DNA from: Syntrophobacterales bacterium
GTDB taxonomy: Bacteria; Desulfobacterota; Syntrophorhabdia; Syntrophorhabdales; Syntrophorhabdaceae
DNA: 64,000 nt
Direction: 5' to 3'
Assembly: GCA_031274925.1 (NCBI GenBank)
Contig: JAISPL010000041.1
Span: forward strand, 1 to 64,000
Below the pieces are notes generated by a model, which ran no database searches, was not told where the DNA came from, and was given only the letters and a program-made list of their open reading frames with translations. Below are positions 23,640 to 42,414 of this stretch, in pieces. Both the position numbers and the translations under genes were made by a program. Numbering within the stretch: position 1 is the first letter of the stretch; each line of letters starts with the position of its first letter.

Positions 23640-24656
23640 ATCGATAGGTTATCACCATACAGTCAGAGGGATTTATGGGAGTACAAAGAATGGCACATAC
23701 GCGAGATGAAGCGTCCGGCTTGAGAGGAGCACTTTCAGTCTTTCACTATCCTGTTCTGTATGCCAGTTCCTCCTTAAGCTTGAGACGGTCAAGATTTGCC
23801 CGTGGAACGTTTCTTATTCCTCAATCCAATCTACACACACACAGCATGTTTTAGATCGTCCCAGTAAGCCATGAGCAGATCAAGATAAGAAACTTACTTA
23901 TTATATTAGGACAGCATAGTATTCTAAGAAGAAAGACATAAATCTCATGACGGGCGGCGGCATTATTCTGCTCGGCTAATACTTGCGCCATTTACCCATA
24001 TATTCGGTTTTGTGACCTTGCAGCAATCCATTCCGCAAAGTCAATCTTGCCTATACGGTGATAAACAATTTCAACCTTTTGTCGGCGGTCGCCCCGCGTT
24101 TGTTCCGTCTCATGGATAATAACTTTGTCAAATAAAATACTCCTGGTCAATCTTCGTCATGTTGGCCGTTGCGGCCGTTTATATGTCCGGTGTCAATAAC
24201 CCGATAGTCTCTACGTTTGTTAAGCCAGATGAACACAACTACCGGCATGTGATGGAAATTGAAACTGTAAAGGACCTAAAAAATATCCTTCTTCGTGACC
24301 TGCTTATTTCGTTGAAGGTTTTACAACAAGACCTGCAGCATCATGTTCACAGTAGAATAGCGGGCTATAGAATCATCAGCCGCATGATATTCCTGGTATG
24401 AGGGTTAGCGGAAAATAACATAGAAAAACAAGGTTGTCTTTGTTTAACTTCCTCGCTTTTCTATCCCATCCCATCTGTCAGTCGTTATTTTAGTGTTTGT
24501 TAGGTGCTTCCTTATATGTACTGTCCATTCTCGCAAGAATTTAAACAAATACCTCACATGAGTGATTGTTTTATGGACTTTCTCTGGGTATAAGAAACAC
24601 AGAATAAGAGAAGCATTAGGATGGAGACAGAAAACATAAAAAATTGGAGGCGTCAT
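23640..24656. other. Long AT-rich intergenic stretch
   Basis: No gene is supported. An 80-codon plus-strand ORF around 24159-24401 has no recognisable domain or ribosome binding site. The region is AT-rich throughout and probably contains the upstream control region of the glcD-like gene. Confidence 0.4.
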
Positions 24657-26026
24657 ATGCTCAATGAACATCTGCTCAAACAGTTTCGCGGAATTGTGGG
24701 TCCAGAAAAGATACTTTCTGAAAGAGAAGACTTAAAGGCCTATTCCTATTATGCTACAACCAATTGGATACGCGAGCCTGATTTGGTAATATTTGCAGAC
24801 AAGGCGGATGAAATAGCAGAGATAATGAGGATCGCCAATGCCAATAAAATACCGGTTACACCGCGAGGCGGAGGTTCATGCTTAAGCGGAGGTCCAGTAC
24901 CCATCCAAGGCGGCATCGTTCTTTGCACCTCAAAAATGAACAAAATCCTTGAGATCGACAAACAGGGAATGACGGCCACGGTGGAACCAGGCGTTGTACT
25001 TTTTGATCTCAATGCCCAGAGAACCTTTTCTTCCCTCCTGATCCCCAAAGCTTTCTTAGTGCAACGATGGGTGGGGTAATCGCGGAGAACGCGGGAGGAC
25101 CAGCTTGTGTAAAGTACGGAGTGACAAAACAATATGTACTTGGACTGGATATAGTGCTCCCAACGGGAGAGATGATCACTTTAGGCGGGAAAACGTTAAA
25201 AAGCGTGGTAGGTTATGACCTGCTTCATTTATTCATCAGTTCAGAAGGTACGCTTGGCGTAATAACAAAGGCAATCGTAAAGATAGCCTTGTTGCCAGCA
25301 GACAGAAAGACAATTCTTGCCGTGTACAATGATGTCGCCACAGCCGGGGAAAACGTTTACCGTGTACTTGAAAATGGAGTAATACCGAGCAAAATTGAAC
25401 TCATCGACAATTGGGTAATTAATCGATTTGAAGATATGATGCACATAGGTTTGCCCCGTGATGCGGATGCAGTCCTTCTCTTTGAGGTTGATGGAGCACC
25501 GGAAGCAGTTGCAATGGAAACTGAAACAATTATACGTATAGCGACGCAATACGGGGCAAGAGACGTCAGGGCGGCAAAAGATATGGATGAAGCCAATAAG
25601 TACTGGGCTGGCAGGCGGGCGGGTTTTGCTGCTGTTTTCGGTGCGGCTGCAACAGTAATGGCTGAAGACGTGACAGTGCCTAGGGGGCAAATTCCTGCAC
25701 TAATAAGCAAATGTAAAGAGTTAGCAAAAAAACACCAGGTGGAAATCGTAATCTTGGGACATGCAGGAGACGGCAATTTACATCCTTCTATCCTTACTGA
25801 CATAAATAATAAGCAACATTATGATCGGGCCGCTGCCGCTATGGACGAGATATTTGAAATGGCCATAACCTTAGGCGGCGTTATTTCAGGAGAACATGGG
25901 ATAGGTCTCGAAAAGGCTAAAGCCTTTAATAAGAGCGTCGACCCAATTGCAGTTAATATGATGAAGCAAATCAAATCACTCATCGACCCAAACAATATAA
26001 TGAACCCGGGCAAGATTTGGTCGTGA
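24657..26026 (+). pseudogene. Frameshifted FAD-linked oxidase, glycolate oxidase GlcD type
   Basis: Two frames together encode a GlcD/D-lactate dehydrogenase-type flavoprotein. The first part (GGAGG, then ATG at 24657) holds the FAD-binding motif VTPRGGGSCLSGG and ends in frame at 25079. The family sequence LFFPPDPQSFLSATMGGVIAENAGG continues in another frame from about 25030 and runs to 26026. It includes KSVVGYDLLHLF, EDVTVPRGQIP, LGHAGDGNLHP and EHGIGLEKA. Between LNAQ and LFFPPDP a few residues are missing, which suggests a short deletion of about 14 bases. The enzyme would oxidise a 2-hydroxy acid. As read it is inactive, unless the shift is a sequencing error. Confidence 0.82.
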
Positions 26027-35207: not shown

Positions 35208-35863
35208 GAGACTCCCACTCTAAAAAGGGTTTTGGCAATGCAGGCTCCGATGCAGTTTTAGAAGGCGAACATCTCGCAGCGAACAGGCTTGTACACTCCT
35301 TCTTCGGTTTTAGATGCGGCGTACATTGACGGTTGAAATAGTTGCGCATCTCCTCAAACATCGTGCAGACAGTTGTGCAAGTTCACATTGAGCGGCATGG
35401 ATTCGCGCCTTTTGATCTCACCATAGAAACAAATAGGCTGTCTCACTTTGCAGACAAAGTAATATTTCCTCTTATGCAGGCTTGTACGCGAAGTTGCAGG
35501 TGATCTGCATCATATGTCTATTGGCGACTCCAGCTTTTACTCCTGAACAGAGCAACTGTAAGCCTTCTCATCCGTCTGAAGAGAGAGGCAAGCTGTCGTC
35601 CCTCTGAATTCACAACCAAATCACACATACCGTGTGTACCCTTGGTACAAGAGAATTCGGCATATCCCTAGTCCCTCGTAAGAAGTACACCCTCCTCGTT
35701 TTTCCGTAAAAAACGGGTTATGGGCGCGGGTGTGCATCAGTTAGCCGGTTTGTCCCCGCATTATCCGTCAGAGCCACTCAAATGCGGATAGCACCCACTG
35801 TCTTTGGCAAAAACAAAATACCGGATGCCGGAGACGAGCAGGAAATCGTTACCATCATACATT
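35208..35863. other. Intergenic stretch downstream of cas7, no CRISPR array
   Basis: I looked for regularly spaced repeats of about 30 bases and found none. No gene is supported either. The stretch separates the convergent ilvE and cas7 genes. Confidence 0.55.
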
Positions 35864-36688
35864 CTACATACCATCAAGTTCTTCCAGGCGGAGTCCGTCA
35901 AGCTTGTCAAGCTCAAGCTTGTATGTCCCGTCGGCATTGACCGTCAGGCTTCTGTGCACTTCCGCCGATGAGAGCGTGGTATCCGTATGGGTCCACCAAA
36001 TGACCTTTAAAACTTCCATACTCCCTGCGGGGCGCGCCGTTGATTCATCGTTTTCAAACAGCCGCAGCATTGCTTTCTTAAGCGTTTCCGCATCGCTGTC
36101 TGAGAAACCGGTCTTTTCGGCGAGCTGGCGGTTGATGCTGCCAAAGGTCATATAAACCCCGCGGTCAACGCGGTGTTTCATACCCATTGTATCGCTGGAT
36201 TTTTTGGCCGGATCTTTTTTGTTCGTCGTGAGGTTCACACTTTTTGTGATTTGCAGGCTTGCAACATCTACCGGTTCGACGGAAAACGCGCTCTGTACGC
36301 TCACCGGCCCACGGATGGCTATAGAAGCGTTTTTCTTATCCACGCCCGCAAACACCTGCCCGAATGCGCGAACGTCAAACCATATTTTACACGCTTCACT
36401 CGCTTTTTCTTCTCCGTCTTTACTTTTTGAAAGATGCTCCATCTTTTTATCATACCGATCTTTAATACTGCGGCAATTATCATTCCGATAGTCATCCGAT
36501 TGTACGAGGATCGCCTCGCCGGCATCCAGTAGACGGTTACGGATCTTTCGTTTGATACACACATCAGAAATCTCGCCATACCCCTCATAATTCGTTCTGG
36601 GGCGGTTGCCGTTTAGCGGGTCACCGTTGGGATTGGCGTTCTTCACGCTAATGATGATCGCGAAATCAATTTTCTTAGTCAGGCTCAT
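35864..36688 (-). CDS. cas7: Type I-C Cascade backbone protein Cas7 (Csd2)
   Basis: The 274-residue protein is a Cas7c/Csd2 RAMP protein. It starts KKIDFAIIISVKNANPNGDPLNGNRPRTN, the family's N-terminal signature, and has SDVCIKRKIRNRLLD, FDVRAFGQVFAG, GPVSVQSAFSVEPV and MGMKHRVDRGVYMTFGSIN. Multiple copies coat the crRNA spacer in the I-C complex. Its start overlaps the stop of cas8c by ATGA. It is the last gene of the cassette; cas4, cas1 and cas2 usually follow here in type I-C but are missing. Confidence 0.95.
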   Translation of the reverse strand: MSLTKKIDFAIIISVKNANPNGDPLNGNRPRTNYEGYGEISDVCIKRKIRNRLLDAGEAILVQSDDYRNDNCRSIKDRYDKKMEHLSKSKDGEEKASEACKIWFDVRAFGQVFAGVDKKNASIAIRGPVSVQSAFSVEPVDVASLQITKSVNLTTNKKDPAKKSSDTMGMKHRVDRGVYMTFGSINRQLAEKTGFSDSDAETLKKAMLRLFENDESTARPAGSMEVLKVIWWTHTDTTLSSAEVHRSLTVNADGTYKLELDKLDGLRLEELDGM

Positions 36689-38556
36689 TGGCTTCTTCCC
36701 CTCTTTTTGTTTTTGGGTCGCAGTCGCAGGGCTCTGCGTTGCAGTGAATATCCGAGCAGGTATTTCCCAGACAAAGTGCTGTCGGTAAACTCCTCCTGGT
36801 CGAATAGGCTCATAATTTCATCAATTTGCTGCTGATACCACTCCGCACCGTTCATCCGCTGCATGTACGGATTCAGCTGATCGAAAATAAGCTTCCATGT
36901 CCGCACCGGCTTTGCCGCAAAGGCGGGCATATACCGCACAGCGTTCGTTGGGCGCTTGTCTGTATCGTCGTCTCCATTCGTCTGACACTTGTCCGTGTCG
37001 TTCTTGTCAATGTCGTCGTCTCCTTTTGTTTGCAGATGCTGCAGGTGCCGCGCGTGGCTTTCTAGCCTGTCGGCAACCGCGAGAAGCCTGCCAAAGAGAT
37101 AATCCCGGTCAGCGCGTTCCTTCTCGAGTTCCAATGAAAATTCCTCCTTTTTTTGGCTGTAATATTTTCGCACGACAGCGCATGTAACGCTTACCGCGTC
37201 TTCCCACTCACTCTTGTCCCAACCGCTGCCGCCCTTATCGTAGGAAAACGGATTGCTCACCCGTGCAACAGTGGCTGATACCCAGCCACGATCAATTGGT
37301 TCGCCACATACGATACAGTGCAACAGTTTTTCACGGGCCTGTTTCTGAATTTTCTTATAACTCGTACCCTTTGGCTCACCGTATACCGCCGCTATGATTC
37401 GGTCTACGCTCGGCGCAGAGATATAGTCTCGGTTTTCCCAGCGAAACCACCAACAGCAGGACTCGTGCCAAGTGATCACACGCTCAATGTATTCGTTTTC
37501 GGGTAGTTCCTGATAGAAGGTGATCCCCATGCGCCCTGTCGTCGCGGCATCCACCGCCATAACCGCAACAAGTCGCACCATGTTTTTGTTATCAATGTTT
37601 TTGGCGCTGCCTTTGCCGCGCAGTGCGGCGCCCAATTTCTTAGCGTAGTCAGTCGCAAGTTTACTGTGTATTTCTATACACTTGTCCGATTCGGTTTCAT
37701 TACTATTCGCATATATACCATATAAATCTTTGGAATTTTTAAATGGATCCGGCTGTGTGCTTCCATCACCAATCGCCCAGGCGACAACAGCTTGCGTGTC
37801 ACATTTGCTCCTCTGCGTGGAAATCAGGTACTTCAACATGGCGTGCGCCTTATGGCTTGCATCCGCGCTGATAGCGTTGGCTTGTTCCGGTTTGTTGAAA
37901 CGCCCTTTGTACGTATAATTTATTTCATCATTGCAGCTGATGAGCTTTGCTCCGTTCACAGACGGATTGATGCCTTTTGGGTGTTTGTATATCGGACGGG
38001 CAACCTCGCCTGTCGCATAACATAGTGTATTGTCTTCCGATTGTGTGTCGGCTAAATAATTCCGCCATGCCCTTGCGACACTTCTATCTTTCCATAGGTC
38101 GGGTGTAAAATCATCCGAAATTTCCACTCTGAAGCGGACGAACAGTTTATCTTCCGTTTGGATTCCTGTGTTTTGCAAATCGTTCAGCAAAGTCCCGCCC
38201 AAGATGTATTCATATACCGCCGTGACTTTTGGATGACAATCGCTCCACTTCTCCAGTTGCGTAAGATACTTTTCACGCTTTTTTGCGTTTAATGCAAGGT
38301 AGCCAAGCTGGTCGTGAAGCGGGTGCGGCTCAATGCCAGATGTTCGCACGGATGAATCTTCTGTACGCGGAATCATGATCGTCTGGGAAGACTTTTCCGC
38401 CCGACGAAAATGACCATTTCCATCAAGAGTAACGCAAATGTCCGTCTTTGCCGCCATGTGGTTCGGCGGTAACAGAACATTTCCCTTTCCATCCGCCGCA
38501 CCGACGATATCCAAGACCCCTTCATACGTTTCGACTAAATTACTGAACCAACTCAA
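36685..38556 (-). CDS. cas8c: Type I-C Cascade large subunit Cas8c (Csd1)
   Basis: The product of about 623 residues matches Cas8c/Csd1 in length and placement, with features such as HDQLGYLALNAKKREKYL, KLISCNDEINYTYKGR and a Cys pair HCIVCGEP. Cas8c recognises the PAM and, by internal initiation, may also yield the small subunit. I chose the TTG at 38556 (M-SWFSNLVETYEG) because GAAGGGGAG lies before it and it overlaps cas5c by only 17 bp; an ORF to 38652 is possible. A D/N/K/T-rich tandem insert lies near residues 515-550. Confidence 0.88.
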   Translation of the reverse strand: MSWFSNLVETYEGVLDIVGAADGKGNVLLPPNHMAAKTDICVTLDGNGHFRRAEKSSQTIMIPRTEDSSVRTSGIEPHPLHDQLGYLALNAKKREKYLTQLEKWSDCHPKVTAVYEYILGGTLLNDLQNTGIQTEDKLFVRFRVEISDDFTPDLWKDRSVARAWRNYLADTQSEDNTLCYATGEVARPIYKHPKGINPSVNGAKLISCNDEINYTYKGRFNKPEQANAISADASHKAHAMLKYLISTQRSKCDTQAVVAWAIGDGSTQPDPFKNSKDLYGIYANSNETESDKCIEIHSKLATDYAKKLGAALRGKGSAKNIDNKNMVRLVAVMAVDAATTGRMGITFYQELPENEYIERVITWHESCCWWFRWENRDYISAPSVDRIIAAVYGEPKGTSYKKIQKQAREKLLHCIVCGEPIDRGWVSATVARVSNPFSYDKGGSGWDKSEWEDAVSVTCAVVRKYYSQKKEEFSLELEKERADRDYLFGRLLAVADRLESHARHLQHLQTKGDDDIDKNDTDKCQTNGDDDTDKRPTNAVRYMPAFAAKPVRTWKLIFDQLNPYMQRMNGAEWYQQQIDEIMSLFDQEEFTDSTLSGKYLLGYSLQRRALRLRPKNKKRGRSQ

Positions 38557-39253
38557 GGCTGAAATTCTCCCCTTCCTTAAACTGTTTGAAACTGTATCCA
38601 TGACCGTACTCGCGGACGACACGGCGCCTCTCGACACTTTCGGGCATTTCAAATTCGATCACACCATCTGTCATGGACTGCCGCCAAAGCCGCACGCCAA
38701 GTTCATTCCTGCCGGTTTCGTCCGGATAGTCAAAACCGTGAAACATCATCCCAAAGTCGATCAAGCCATAGCGGTCATAAAAGCCCTCACCCTCGCCGAA
38801 CGCACACGGTTCGACGTATGCCTGACACTCTCGCGTGCCGAGAAACACATCGCGGCGTCCGCCCTGCTCAACACAGCGCCGCGCAATGTTGTGGTGCTTG
38901 TGCTCATCCCGGTCATTCACCAAATCGAGACGATGTACATTCCACTCGAAATGCGCCGAAACCTGATACTCAACGTCTCGAAGGTAGGTGTAGTACGCGA
39001 GATCATTGCCTCCGTTCATTTTGATTGGACGGATCCCCTTACTCTCGGTTTGAATGCGCTTTATAACGCGCACTGCGTCGATGTACCAGATAAACGTCGG
39101 CTTCCAGTACACACTTTCGGTAATCCCTTTCAGCGCCTGGTATGTCGGTGCCTGATAACTGAACTTCTCGCCGCCAGGGCGGGTTATGGGGTCTGAGAAC
39201 AGCGCATACCTGCCATAGACCTTGAATTGCACCGTGTTTCGCCTTGCTTCCAT
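38540..39253 (-). CDS. cas5c: Type I-C crRNA-processing protein Cas5c (Csd5)
   Basis: The 237-residue protein is Cas5c/Cas5d, the subunit that in type I-C replaces Cas6 as pre-crRNA endonuclease and then caps the crRNA 5' end. It has FKVYGRYALFSDPITRPGGEKFSYQAPTYQAL split over the usual N-terminal motif, a central RDVEYQVSAHFEW, and FLGTRECQAYVEPCAFGEGEGFYD. The gene lies between cas3 and cas8c, the standard order. The presence of a processing enzyme implies an array elsewhere in the genome or relic status. Confidence 0.93.
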   Translation of the reverse strand: MEARRNTVQFKVYGRYALFSDPITRPGGEKFSYQAPTYQALKGITESVYWKPTFIWYIDAVRVIKRIQTESKGIRPIKMNGGNDLAYYTYLRDVEYQVSAHFEWNVHRLDLVNDRDEHKHHNIARRCVEQGGRRDVFLGTRECQAYVEPCAFGEGEGFYDRYGLIDFGMMFHGFDYPDETGRNELGVRLWRQSMTDGVIEFEMPESVERRRVVREYGHGYSFKQFKEGENFSLELVQ

Positions 39254-39280
39254 GCCATCACCCCTCAGACAAGTAAAAAA

Positions 39281-41557
39281 TTATGAACCCTCCAAGTCAA
39301 CACCGCATTCTTTGTCGTAAAACCAGCATGCAAGCTCTGCGATACCCCCGCGGTCAAGAAGCGCACCGCGGCGTAACAGCTCGTCCAGTTGATACTGATA
39401 CAATGAGACACTGTATTGTCCCAGCTTACGCAACAACTCGCGCTTTACCGCAATGTTATCCGCGGCTAGGAATTTCGCCATAAGTTTATCACTCTCTCCG
39501 TACGGAACGATAACCTCTGTACGCCCCCTTTCAATGACGTAAAATGCGTCAGAGGCCGAGTGGATTGCCGAATGCAGGGAAGGCGGGGTAACATCCCTCT
39601 TATCCTTGCGGTCTCTGTATGCGCCACAACCATGTCTATTATCAGACAACAAGTCATATACCGTCCTCCCCTCGTCGCCATTGATTGGGTAATCCATCAT
39701 CGTGCGCCGCTCGTGAAAATAGTATCGATAATACAGGTCAATGTCAAGATTCCCGTCGTCAAACAACCACTTCGTAATTTCCGCACCTTTTTTGATGTCG
39801 GGTAGTCTGCTTAGGTTTTCGTCTTTGATGTTGACGACATAAACATGCTTTACTTCGCCAAACTCACCGTGCCGGTTACATCTGCCTGCCGCCTGAAATA
39901 CGCTATCAAGTCCCGCGACATCGCGGACAACGCATTCGAGTGAAATATTGACGCCTGCCTCAATCAGTTGCGTGGAGACGCATATGACAGGTTCCTTTTT
40001 TTTCAGGCGGCAGCGCAGTTTTTTAATCACCTTATCGCGGTGCGCAGAACACATATTTGTACTGAGGTGTAGCGCCGGGGCACCAACCTTTCTTAGCTCA
40101 TCATATAGCGATCTCGCCGCAGCTTTTGTATTGACGATCACGAGGGTTGAATTTGTATGCTTTGCCAAAATGAATGCGGCTAAGTCCGTATATGAATACC
40201 CGCCAGGTATCATCGCATTTTCGATATGATAACGCTCCGGTACAGGACCGCAGTCGGCGATGGATGGATTTTCCGAAAAAATGAGCGGTCGGCAGACCTT
40301 GTCAAGGAGCGGCTGCGTTGCGGAACAAAGCAAAATCGTGCTTCCGCAGGCGCGGTGCAGAAAACTTACCGCACCGTTAAAGAGATGTACGCATTTTATC
40401 GGCAGACTCTGTGCCTCATCAAAGATCAGCACGCTGCGAGACATATTGTGAAGCTTACGCAGATCGCTGCCTTTTGCGGAAAAGATGCTTTCCAGAAATT
40501 GCACTTGTGTTGTCAGGATAACCGGCGCATCCCAGCGGTTCGTATGCAATTTGTAATTCTCTTGGGTATCCGGCAGGAAATTCGAGTGGTGTTCAAGTAC
40601 AGTTTTGTCATCAGCCCCGAGTGCAAGGCGAATTTCGCGTGCCGTCTGGCTCAATATAGAGAGATAGGGTATGATGTAGATAATCCTGTCCAGCCCATAC
40701 AGCCGCGCGTGTTCAAGCGCGAATCGAAGACTGGACAGTGTTTTCCCGCCCCCTGTCGGTACTTCCAGCTTATAGATGCCAGGCTCCCGCAATCCGGCCA
40801 CCGCGCAGTCATCCGATACGCGCCTCCGCAATGCCCCCATCTCTGATCGCGAGTCAAATTTGGAGAGCCTGCGCGCAAGCTGTGAGAGCATCTTGTCCCA
40901 GTCGGGGTTTTCGGGTGAATACTGTTGGCCGCTATCGGAAAGATAGGCATCCAGGCGGTCGGCGTCAACCAGACATGAATAAATGAATTTCGTCAACATG
41001 GAGATCCAGAACGGTTTATCATATTCAGACGCTGCCATGAGTATGGTAGCAAGCTCATTTTCTAACGCCTTGATATCAATGAAGGGGCAATCCGCAGACG
41101 TTGGAAAGTCCGTGATGTCCGACAATTTATCAAGCAACGGCGTATCTCCATGGGGAGCTATACTATCATAGAGCCCCCCATGGTGCGCCGCGATGGCGTT
41201 ACTAAGGATTTCGGCAACAGGCGGGTATGAAAATGTTTCATTATAAGCTCGTTTTGCGCCAAAAACGCTGTGTTTTATGGACCCGCGCTTAGCGTTATCA
41301 TTGGATAAATACTTCTGAAAATCAGGTGATATTTTACCGAAATCATGAAAAAAACCGGCTATACGCGAGAGCTCTGCCGCGCCGCATTTGCCTCCAAATA
41401 GGGACGCAAGCGCAGACACCTTCGCAGAGTGCTCGCTCAGAGATTGTCCTGGACGCGCCAACATCCCATCCCAAAATGTGGAATGTTCTGCCGTGGTTTC
41501 CATCATCCCACGTACAATGTGTAACCCGTACAGATATATAGCGTTATAGTCTTTCAT
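39281..41557 (-). CDS. cas3: CRISPR helicase-nuclease Cas3 (HD plus DExD/H)
   Basis: The product has about 758 residues. The HD nuclease domain comes first (SLSEHSAKV, GFFHDFGKISPDF with HD near residue 71, AIAAHHGGLYD). The SF2 helicase follows: EVPTGGGKTLSS (motif I), LIFDEAQSLP (motif II, DEAQ), CSATQPLLDK (III), and QAAGRCNRHGE (VI). All catalytic motifs appear intact. Cas3 unwinds and degrades target DNA after Cascade binding. I chose the ATG at 41557 behind AAGGGAG; a GTG at 41572 overlaps that ribosome binding site. It is the first gene of the cassette. Confidence 0.93.
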   Translation of the reverse strand: MKDYNAIYLYGLHIVRGMMETTAEHSTFWDGMLARPGQSLSEHSAKVSALASLFGGKCGAAELSRIAGFFHDFGKISPDFQKYLSNDNAKRGSIKHSVFGAKRAYNETFSYPPVAEILSNAIAAHHGGLYDSIAPHGDTPLLDKLSDITDFPTSADCPFIDIKALENELATILMAASEYDKPFWISMLTKFIYSCLVDADRLDAYLSDSGQQYSPENPDWDKMLSQLARRLSKFDSRSEMGALRRRVSDDCAVAGLREPGIYKLEVPTGGGKTLSSLRFALEHARLYGLDRIIYIIPYLSILSQTAREIRLALGADDKTVLEHHSNFLPDTQENYKLHTNRWDAPVILTTQVQFLESIFSAKGSDLRKLHNMSRSVLIFDEAQSLPIKCVHLFNGAVSFLHRACGSTILLCSATQPLLDKVCRPLIFSENPSIADCGPVPERYHIENAMIPGGYSYTDLAAFILAKHTNSTLVIVNTKAAARSLYDELRKVGAPALHLSTNMCSAHRDKVIKKLRCRLKKKEPVICVSTQLIEAGVNISLECVVRDVAGLDSVFQAAGRCNRHGEFGEVKHVYVVNIKDENLSRLPDIKKGAEITKWLFDDGNLDIDLYYRYYFHERRTMMDYPINGDEGRTVYDLLSDNRHGCGAYRDRKDKRDVTPPSLHSAIHSASDAFYVIERGRTEVIVPYGESDKLMAKFLAADNIAVKRELLRKLGQYSVSLYQYQLDELLRRGALLDRGGIAELACWFYDKECGVDLEGS

Positions 41558-42414
41558 ACAAACTCCCTTCACAAGAACTTCATCTACATCAATGGCTATA
41601 ACAAAGTCCTCATGGATACTGCCTCTTCTCTTGCGGCAGCTTTAAGGAAGTATAAATTTAACTGATTATATTATCTGAGGTTGAAATATGCAATTGCATT
41701 CTCAATCTTCCACAGTTCTTCGAGTTCCGTCCACTTGCAGTGTTTCGAGAGATTTTTGAAACTGTGATGGATACGGCTATGTCGCATTCCACCCGCCATT
41801 TGGTAAGTGTAAATGTTCCGTTGTAGATCGGATGGGCGGTTCACCTACAAGCCCGAAACGGACAGAAAGGGACGCGCCGCATCCTCCCGCCCAACGTTTT
41901 AGTGTTCCCAAAAAAACTGAGCGCACTGCAATCTGGCCAATCTATGAATTCTCAAAAAAAAACTTTCCGTCGAAATGCCCATGCCCATAGATCATTGGTT
42001 TATCATTGCCCGCCGTGGCTGTCCTGCAAAAAGGCAGTCGCTTTTTTATTCACGGAAAAAGTTTGTGCAATTTGGCCGGTTGACTTTGGGCCCTCAAGAT
42101 GACCGAGTTAATAAATACCATGCAGTTTGCTGCAGGAGACTTTCAAGCTAGAGTAAGGGATCGTGCCAGCAAGACACAGAACGAAAGCTTTTTATGACGT
42201 GCTCTACATCATGCCTCTTACGCCATGTGGTTCCGAGGCAAAGGCGGTATATTGGCCCCGCAAAACCGGCACTTCGTTCTATTCATGTTTTTCGCTTGCT
42301 TTGATCATCTGTTCTCTTTTGCATAGAGTGCATATCCTCCGAAGCTTTATGAAGGAAACAAAAAATTGGTTCGTCGCTCCTGCTTTTTTCCGCCGATGCA
42401 CCGCTATCCGCCTG
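41558..42414. other. Intergenic stretch upstream of cas3, no array or adaptation genes
   Basis: No regularly spaced repeats and no gene are visible. It should contain the cas promoter. ORFs of 66 and 117 codons on the plus strand have no recognisable motifs. Confidence 0.5.

What the first reader, a model, noticed from the sequence alone, without database searches (positions are those of the whole stretch)
35864..41557. Type I-C effector set without adaptation genes or array
cas3, cas5c, cas8c and cas7 are present and look intact, while cas4, cas1 and cas2 are missing and no repeats are seen in the flanks (35208-35863 and 41558-42414). It could work with an array elsewhere, be a minimal or repurposed system, or be a relic.
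Basis: seen in the sequence. Interest (0 to 1): 0.6.

Follow-up and report, generated by a model that had tools for sequence, protein, structure and literature searches.

The report
Type I-C CRISPR effector lacking adaptation

Summary
The effector genes are real and intact: cas3, cas5c, cas8c and cas7, plus the internal Cas11c start inside cas8c with a perfect ribosome-binding site. cas1, cas2 and an array are absent from the whole 68-kb contig. But the flank called empty (35208-35863) holds a decayed cas4: about 200 of 223 residues align to the Cas4 of the closest relative, only with about 11 frameshifts and 2 stops (score 296; shuffles at most 36). So this was a complete Clostridia-type I-C locus that lost its adaptation end. 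The 5.7-kb effector has no lesion and does not evolve faster than its relatives, which argues that selection kept it after cas4 died. Elsewhere the genome has a second, divergent I-C locus (cas3-5-8-7-cas4-cas1, cut by a contig end), one I-C array (9 repeats, another contig) and a type II-A locus. The array's repeat is used, letter for letter, by complete loci of both effector lineages in other genomes. Best reading: an interference-only I-C module taking crRNAs in trans; that use is inferred, not shown. It is a new member of a known kind (adaptation-deficient CRISPR loci), uncommon in I-C: 1 of 40 loci sampled in the phylum lacks cas1.

The parts
39281..41557 (-). cas3 (HD nuclease plus helicase, 758 aa)
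   Evidence: NCBIfam cas3_core and cas3_HD; HD, GGGKT, DEAQ, SATQ and QAAGRCNR motifs present in the alignment; SD before ATG 41557
38540..39253 (-). cas5c (crRNA-processing endonuclease, 237 aa)
   Evidence: TIGR01876 248 bits; closest solved structure BH0337 4f3m, E 6e-89, with the Tyr and Lys-His of the known active site aligned to identical residues
36685..38556 (-). cas8c/csd1 (large subunit, 623 aa from TTG 38556; the listed ORF starts at 38652)
   Evidence: TIGR01863 268 bits, PF09709 334 bits; start and SD
36685..37134 (-). cas11c (small subunit, 149 aa) from an internal TTG start in cas8c; AGGAGG at 37143-37148
   Evidence: perfect SD and aligned start kept in relatives L032-L035 and most I-C loci examined; internal RBS described for D. 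vulgaris Cas8c (PMC7684278)
35864..36688 (-). cas7/csd2 (backbone, 274 aa), start overlapping the cas8c stop
   Evidence: TIGR02589 310 bits; 76-79% identical to L032-L035
35253..35859 (-). cas4 pseudogene, residues 3-204 of about 223, about 11 frameshifts and 2 in-frame stops
   Evidence: tblastn pieces; frameshift-aware alignment 296 vs 30.9 +/- 3.0 for 20 shuffles, max 36; reversed-sequence control 28
41558..42414 (.). upstream flank between a kefB-like gene and cas3; no array, no adaptation-gene trace

Best explanation
This is an interference-only type I-C CRISPR-Cas module. It descends from a complete Clostridia-type cas3-cas5-cas8c-cas7-cas4-cas1-cas2-array locus acquired by horizontal transfer. 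cas1, cas2 and the array were then lost and cas4 decayed (the relic is shown; order and timing are inferred). The effector (Cas5c, Cas7, Cas8c, Cas11c and Cas3) was kept by selection and is probably functional. Most likely it uses crRNAs transcribed from the I-C array now on contig C3: Cas5c cuts at the repeat hairpin, Cascade assembles on the crRNA, and Cas3 degrades the target. New spacers would come from the adaptation genes of the second I-C locus (C4). Use of the C3 array in trans is inferred from repeat identity, not shown.
For: Cas4 relic directly after cas7, in the canonical position, matching the Cas4 of the closest relative far better than that of the other I-C locus (296 vs 62). Relatives L033 and L034 (76-77% in cas5 and cas7) carry the complete locus and array. 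Effector: no stop or frameshift in 5.7 kb, while the relic has about 13 lesions in 607 bp; pN 0.12-0.30 with saturated pS; window branch no longer than those of relatives. Cas11c SD and start kept although third codon positions are only about 40% identical. One I-C array in the genome, 9 repeats on C3; the same repeat is used by a complete window-type locus (L147) and by two complete C4-type loci (L113, L141). GC3 like that of host genes, so not a contaminant.
Against: No direct evidence of expression or of loading crRNA from C3. The C3 repeat is not the repeat of the closest relatives (edit distance 4-6 for L033-L035). The C4 effector may monopolise the array. The assembly has gaps just where the C4 cas1 and the start of the C3 array should be, so the inventory is incomplete. 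Three C3 spacers gave no exact viral match.
Confidence: 0.66

Rival explanations
1. The whole locus is a recent relic: the effector stopped working when the array was lost, and there has not yet been time for lesions.
For: No array or adaptation genes in cis; two related loci are decaying: L035 with cas3 split by an inversion and frameshifts in cas8c and cas1, and L030 with truncated cas8c and a cas4 remnant.
Against: cas4 is heavily decayed while 5.7 kb of effector has no lesion, including the internal Cas11c start and the overlapping cas8-cas7 junction; window branches are not lengthened. Simultaneous release from selection would give about 120 disabling lesions. The rival survives only if the effector was released much later than cas4.
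Confidence: 0.18
2. It is an ordinary complete system in pieces: its own cas1-cas2 and array lie in an unassembled gap.
For: Draft of 57 contigs at 97% completeness; contigs C3, C4 and C29 break at CRISPR loci.
Against: cas7, dead cas4 and a host aminotransferase gene are continuous on one contig, so the canonical position is already read and empty; only one I-C array is found; the C3 break is more simply explained by the C4 locus, whose cas1 is cut by its contig end.
Confidence: 0.12
3. The effector has been repurposed, for gene regulation or for RNA-guided transposition (I-C CAST).
For: Effector without adaptation genes; I-C-derived CASTs exist (PMC12669027).
Against: Cas3 with its HD and helicase motifs is intact, whereas most CASTs have inactivated effectors; no transposition genes were recognised among neighbouring ORFs.
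Confidence: 0.04

Closest known systems
Complete I-C loci of Clostridiales MAGs (L033 JAAYHB010000018, L034 DURE01000032)
   Same: same effector lineage and gene order, 57-77% identity
   Different: they keep cas4, cas1, cas2 and an adjacent array
Bacillus halodurans type I-C (BH0337 Cas5c, 4f3m; Cas4-Cas1-Cas2 complex, PMC6519985)
   Same: Cas5c of the same lineage with the same active-site residues
   Different: has a working Cas4-Cas1-Cas2 complex
Pseudomonas aeruginosa I-C on pKLC102 with frameshifted cas1 (PMC7913775)
   Same: effector kept, adaptation broken; interference was shown to work there
   Different: array retained in cis; here array and cas1-cas2 are gone and only cas4 remains, as a pseudogene
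Adaptation in trans, Flavobacterium columnare VI-B with II-C (PMC8092290)
   Same: a locus without its own acquisition genes served by another CRISPR locus of the same genome
   Different: different types, array in cis, shown by experiment
Subtype III-G, suggested to recruit crRNAs in trans (PMC12669027)
   Same: effector locus with neither adaptation genes nor array
   Different: a different type, and array-less as a rule
I-C locus L145 (genome G342, same phylum as the window)
   Same: I-C effector that lost cas1-cas2, with intact loci in two species of its genus
   Different: there the deletion joins a truncated cas4 directly to a retained array of 26 repeats

Membership tests
CRISPR-Cas subtype I-C | Cas8c/Csd1 signature large subunit | tested here: met
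   TIGR01863 268 bits over cut-off 219
CRISPR-Cas subtype I-C | Cas5c that processes crRNA (no Cas6) | tested here: met
   TIGR01876 248 bits; active-site Tyr and Lys-His identical to BH0337 in the alignment; the catalytic role of these residues is from general knowledge; activity not tested
CRISPR-Cas subtype I-C | Cas7/Csd2 and fused HD-helicase Cas3 | tested here: met
CRISPR-Cas subtype I-C | Cas11c from an internal start in cas8c | tested here: met
   AGGAGG and TTG aligned with the start in relatives
CRISPR-Cas subtype I-C | cas4-cas1-cas2 adaptation module in the locus | tested here: not met
   cas4 is a pseudogene; cas1 and cas2 absent from the contig. The locus is a reduced I-C locus (effector module only), not a canonical complete one
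CRISPR-Cas subtype I-C | CRISPR array next to the cas genes | tested here: not met
   no repeat pair on C41; the only I-C array is on C3
Adaptation-deficient CRISPR-Cas loci served in trans | intact effector without own adaptation genes | tested here: met
Adaptation-deficient CRISPR-Cas loci served in trans | compatible array in the same genome | tested here: met
   C3 repeat identical to that of a complete window-type locus, L147
Adaptation-deficient CRISPR-Cas loci served in trans | crRNAs actually taken from the other array | not testable with these tools
   needs RNA data or experiment
I-C CAST (RNA-guided transposon) | Tn7-like transposition genes and loss of target cleavage | tested here: not met
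   cas3 intact; no transposition genes recognised in ORFs around the locus, though not all ORFs were scanned with profiles

The most novel reading that the evidence does not exclude
Two I-C effector complexes of different lineages (B. halodurans-like and D. vulgaris/N. lactamica-like, Cas5 about 29% identical) share one CRISPR array and one adaptation module in the same cell, so that the same spacers are enforced by two effectors with different surfaces, for instance as insurance against anti-CRISPR proteins.
Probability: 0.35. Interest if true: 0.55.

Novelty: new member of a known kind. Interest (0 to 1): 0.36.

Why it matters
The locus carries its own control: in one operon the adaptation gene has rotted while the effector has not, which argues that an effector can stay under selection after losing its memory-making half. 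If the trans use is real, it is a natural test of whether two divergent I-C Cascades can read one array. It also shows that a flank scored as 'empty' by ORF reading can hold a decisive pseudogene.

Tried and rejected
Degenerate array in the flanks: rejected, no match to three I-C repeats with up to 11 mismatches in the window. cas1 or cas2 remnants in either flank: rejected, scores at shuffle level. Contaminant contig: rejected, GC3 of the cas genes 0.54-0.63 vs 0.53-0.59 for neighbours. Empty-site test by synteny: failed, the flanking kefB-like gene has only 27-31% relatives in the genus. Effector-only loci in G265 and G428: withdrawn, cas1 and the array lie further along the same contigs. 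Array-less I-C in G342: withdrawn, an array with the variant tail GTGGATTGAAG is present; this prompted a looser array search of the window's genome, which again found only C3. Viral carriage of this effector lineage: none found. C3 spacers against viral contigs: three tried, no exact match. No structure prediction was run: sequence matches to solved structures were already decisive for the families.

Full report
Observation. On the minus strand, cas3 (41557-39281), cas5c (39253-38540), cas8c (38556-36685) and cas7 (36688-35864) are each a single open frame with a Shine-Dalgarno-like sequence before the start and no internal stop. All match I-C models and Pfam families. Cas5c is closest, among solved structures, to BH0337 of B. 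halodurans, with the aligned Tyr and Lys-His pair identical. Cas3 keeps HD and helicase motifs. Inside cas8c a TTG at 37134 is preceded by AGGAGG and would give the 149-residue Cas11c; the same signal stands at the same codon in L032-L035 and in most I-C loci looked at. An internal ribosome-binding site for the small subunit is described for D. vulgaris Cas8c (PMC7684278).

The flank is not empty. Between cas7 and the convergent aminotransferase gene lie 656 bp without a long ORF. Cas4 proteins of the closest relatives hit it in pieces. A protein-to-DNA alignment that allows frameshifts aligns residues 3-204 of the L035 Cas4 to 35859-35253 with a score of 296. Dinucleotide-preserving shuffles gave 30.9 +/- 3.0 (20 shuffles, maximum 36), the reverse complement 25 and the other flank 33; reversed sequence gave 28. 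The best path needs 11 frameshifts and 2 stops, with 94 identities in 204 columns. The Cas4 of the genome's other I-C locus scores only 62, so the relic descends with its own operon. No trace of cas1 or cas2 remains; the relic ends about 45 bp before the aminotransferase gene.

Where it came from. A scan of 84,980 species genomes found four close relatives of this Cas8c, all in Clostridiales or Oscillospiraceae MAGs (56-64% identity). L033 and L034 are complete, with cas4, cas1, cas2 and an array. L035 has all genes, but the block cas3 C-terminus-cas5-cas8-cas7 is inverted with respect to the rest of cas3 and to cas4-1-2, and cas8c and cas1 are frameshifted. L032 has an unrelated gene after cas7, and no I-C cas1 was found in its genome, which has a short I-C array on another contig; that is a MAG on short contigs, so it is only suggestive. 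In the window's own family and phylum the nearest Cas8c proteins are only 35-38% identical, so transfer from Clostridia is the natural reading. GC3 of the operon now equals that of its neighbours.

Selection. Between the window and its relatives the effector genes have pN 0.12-0.30 and saturated pS; third positions are 34-47% identical. The window is at least as close to each relative as relatives of different lineages are to each other (cas8c: window-L034 61%, L032-L034 55%; cas5c: window-L034 77%, L032-L034 69%), so its branch is not accelerated. For cas4 the pattern is reversed: relic-L035 46% at best, intact L033-L035 52%. About 13 lesions in 607 bp of cas4 would scale to about 120 in the 5.7 kb of effector; none is seen. 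This argues that the effector was kept after cas4 died. It does not date the loss of cas1-cas2, and it cannot exclude a recent release from selection.

The rest of the genome. Contig C4 ends with a second I-C locus: cas3, cas5, cas8c, cas7, a 593-bp gap, an intact cas4 and about the first 29 codons of cas1, where the contig stops. Its Cas5 belongs to the N. lactamica/D. vulgaris group and is about 29% identical to the window Cas5. Contig C3 starts inside an I-C array with 9 repeats GTCGCCCCCCACGCGGGGGCGTGGATTGAAAC; a looser pair pattern found no other I-C array, with 0 control matches. C29 starts with a type II-A csn2-cas2-cas1-cas9 set. All three breaks fall at CRISPR loci, so the inventory is a draft one. 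The simplest join is C4, then the missing cas1-cas2, then C3; that is inference.

Could the window effector read the C3 array? Repeats from 39 loci with their own effector were compared. The exact C3 repeat occurs in L113 and L141 (C4-type effector) and in L147, a complete locus of the window type with 41 repeats. All but a few of these repeats share the GTCGC start, and all share the GTGGATTGAA tail; four that were folded form the same hairpin. So the repeat is compatible with both lineages. Actual use is not shown.

How unusual. Of 40 I-C loci fetched from the phylum (from 86 genomes with Cas8c among 394; chosen for long contigs and high scores, so not a random sample), 39 have cas1 on the same contig, two of them several kb beyond cas7; one, L145, lost cas1-cas2 by a deletion that joins a truncated cas4 to the array, while two species of the same genus (L165, L166) are intact. 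Outside that set, L030 is a decayed window-type locus with a cas4 remnant, in a genome with a complete C4-type locus, and L031 ends too close to a contig end to judge.

Known ground. Adaptation-deficient loci, cross-use of adaptation genes, and I-C systems with broken cas1 that still interfere are described (PMC8092290; PMC7913775; PMC12814883). Cas4 works with Cas1-Cas2 in I-C spacer capture (PMC6519985), so losing it should not touch interference.

Noticed in passing
L035 7225-13700 (WRAV01000016): I-C locus in which the block cas3 C-terminus-cas5-cas8c-cas7 is inverted relative to the cas3 N-terminus and cas4-cas1-cas2; no clear long inverted repeat at the breakpoints. Misassembly not excluded.
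   Followed up: partly
L145 11772-13800 (genome G342): cas4 truncated after about 115 codons and joined directly to a 26-repeat array (variant tail GTGGATTGAAG); cas1-cas2 deleted, while two species of the same genus keep them.
   Followed up: partly
L030 (G113 contig C111): Window-type I-C locus with truncated cas8c and a cas4 remnant, in a genome that also has a complete C4-type I-C locus: the fully decayed counterpart of the window case.
   Followed up: partly
L002 78-6266 (G000 contig C29): AT-rich type II-A locus (csn2, cas2, cas1, 1417-aa cas9) at a contig start; its array is cut off. An unusual companion for two I-C loci.
   Followed up: no
L023 7901-8493 and 4186-4519: The C4 I-C locus has a 593-bp gap between cas7 and cas4 and a 334-bp gap between cas3 and cas5 that holds a lone GTGGATTGAAA on the minus strand.
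   Followed up: no
L048 and L047 (G000 C57:33431, C47:2268): Lone repeat-like tails (GGGAGCGTGGATTGAAAC and GGGGGTGGATTGAAAC) outside any array.
   Followed up: no
window 36955-37032: 48-bp in-frame imperfect tandem duplication (GDDDIDK.../GDDDTDK...) in the Cas11c part of cas8c; relative L035 has a single short copy.
   Followed up: no
window 24621-26026: FAD-binding oxidase (glcD-like) read as two overlapping ORFs in different frames, so probably frameshifted.
   Followed up: no
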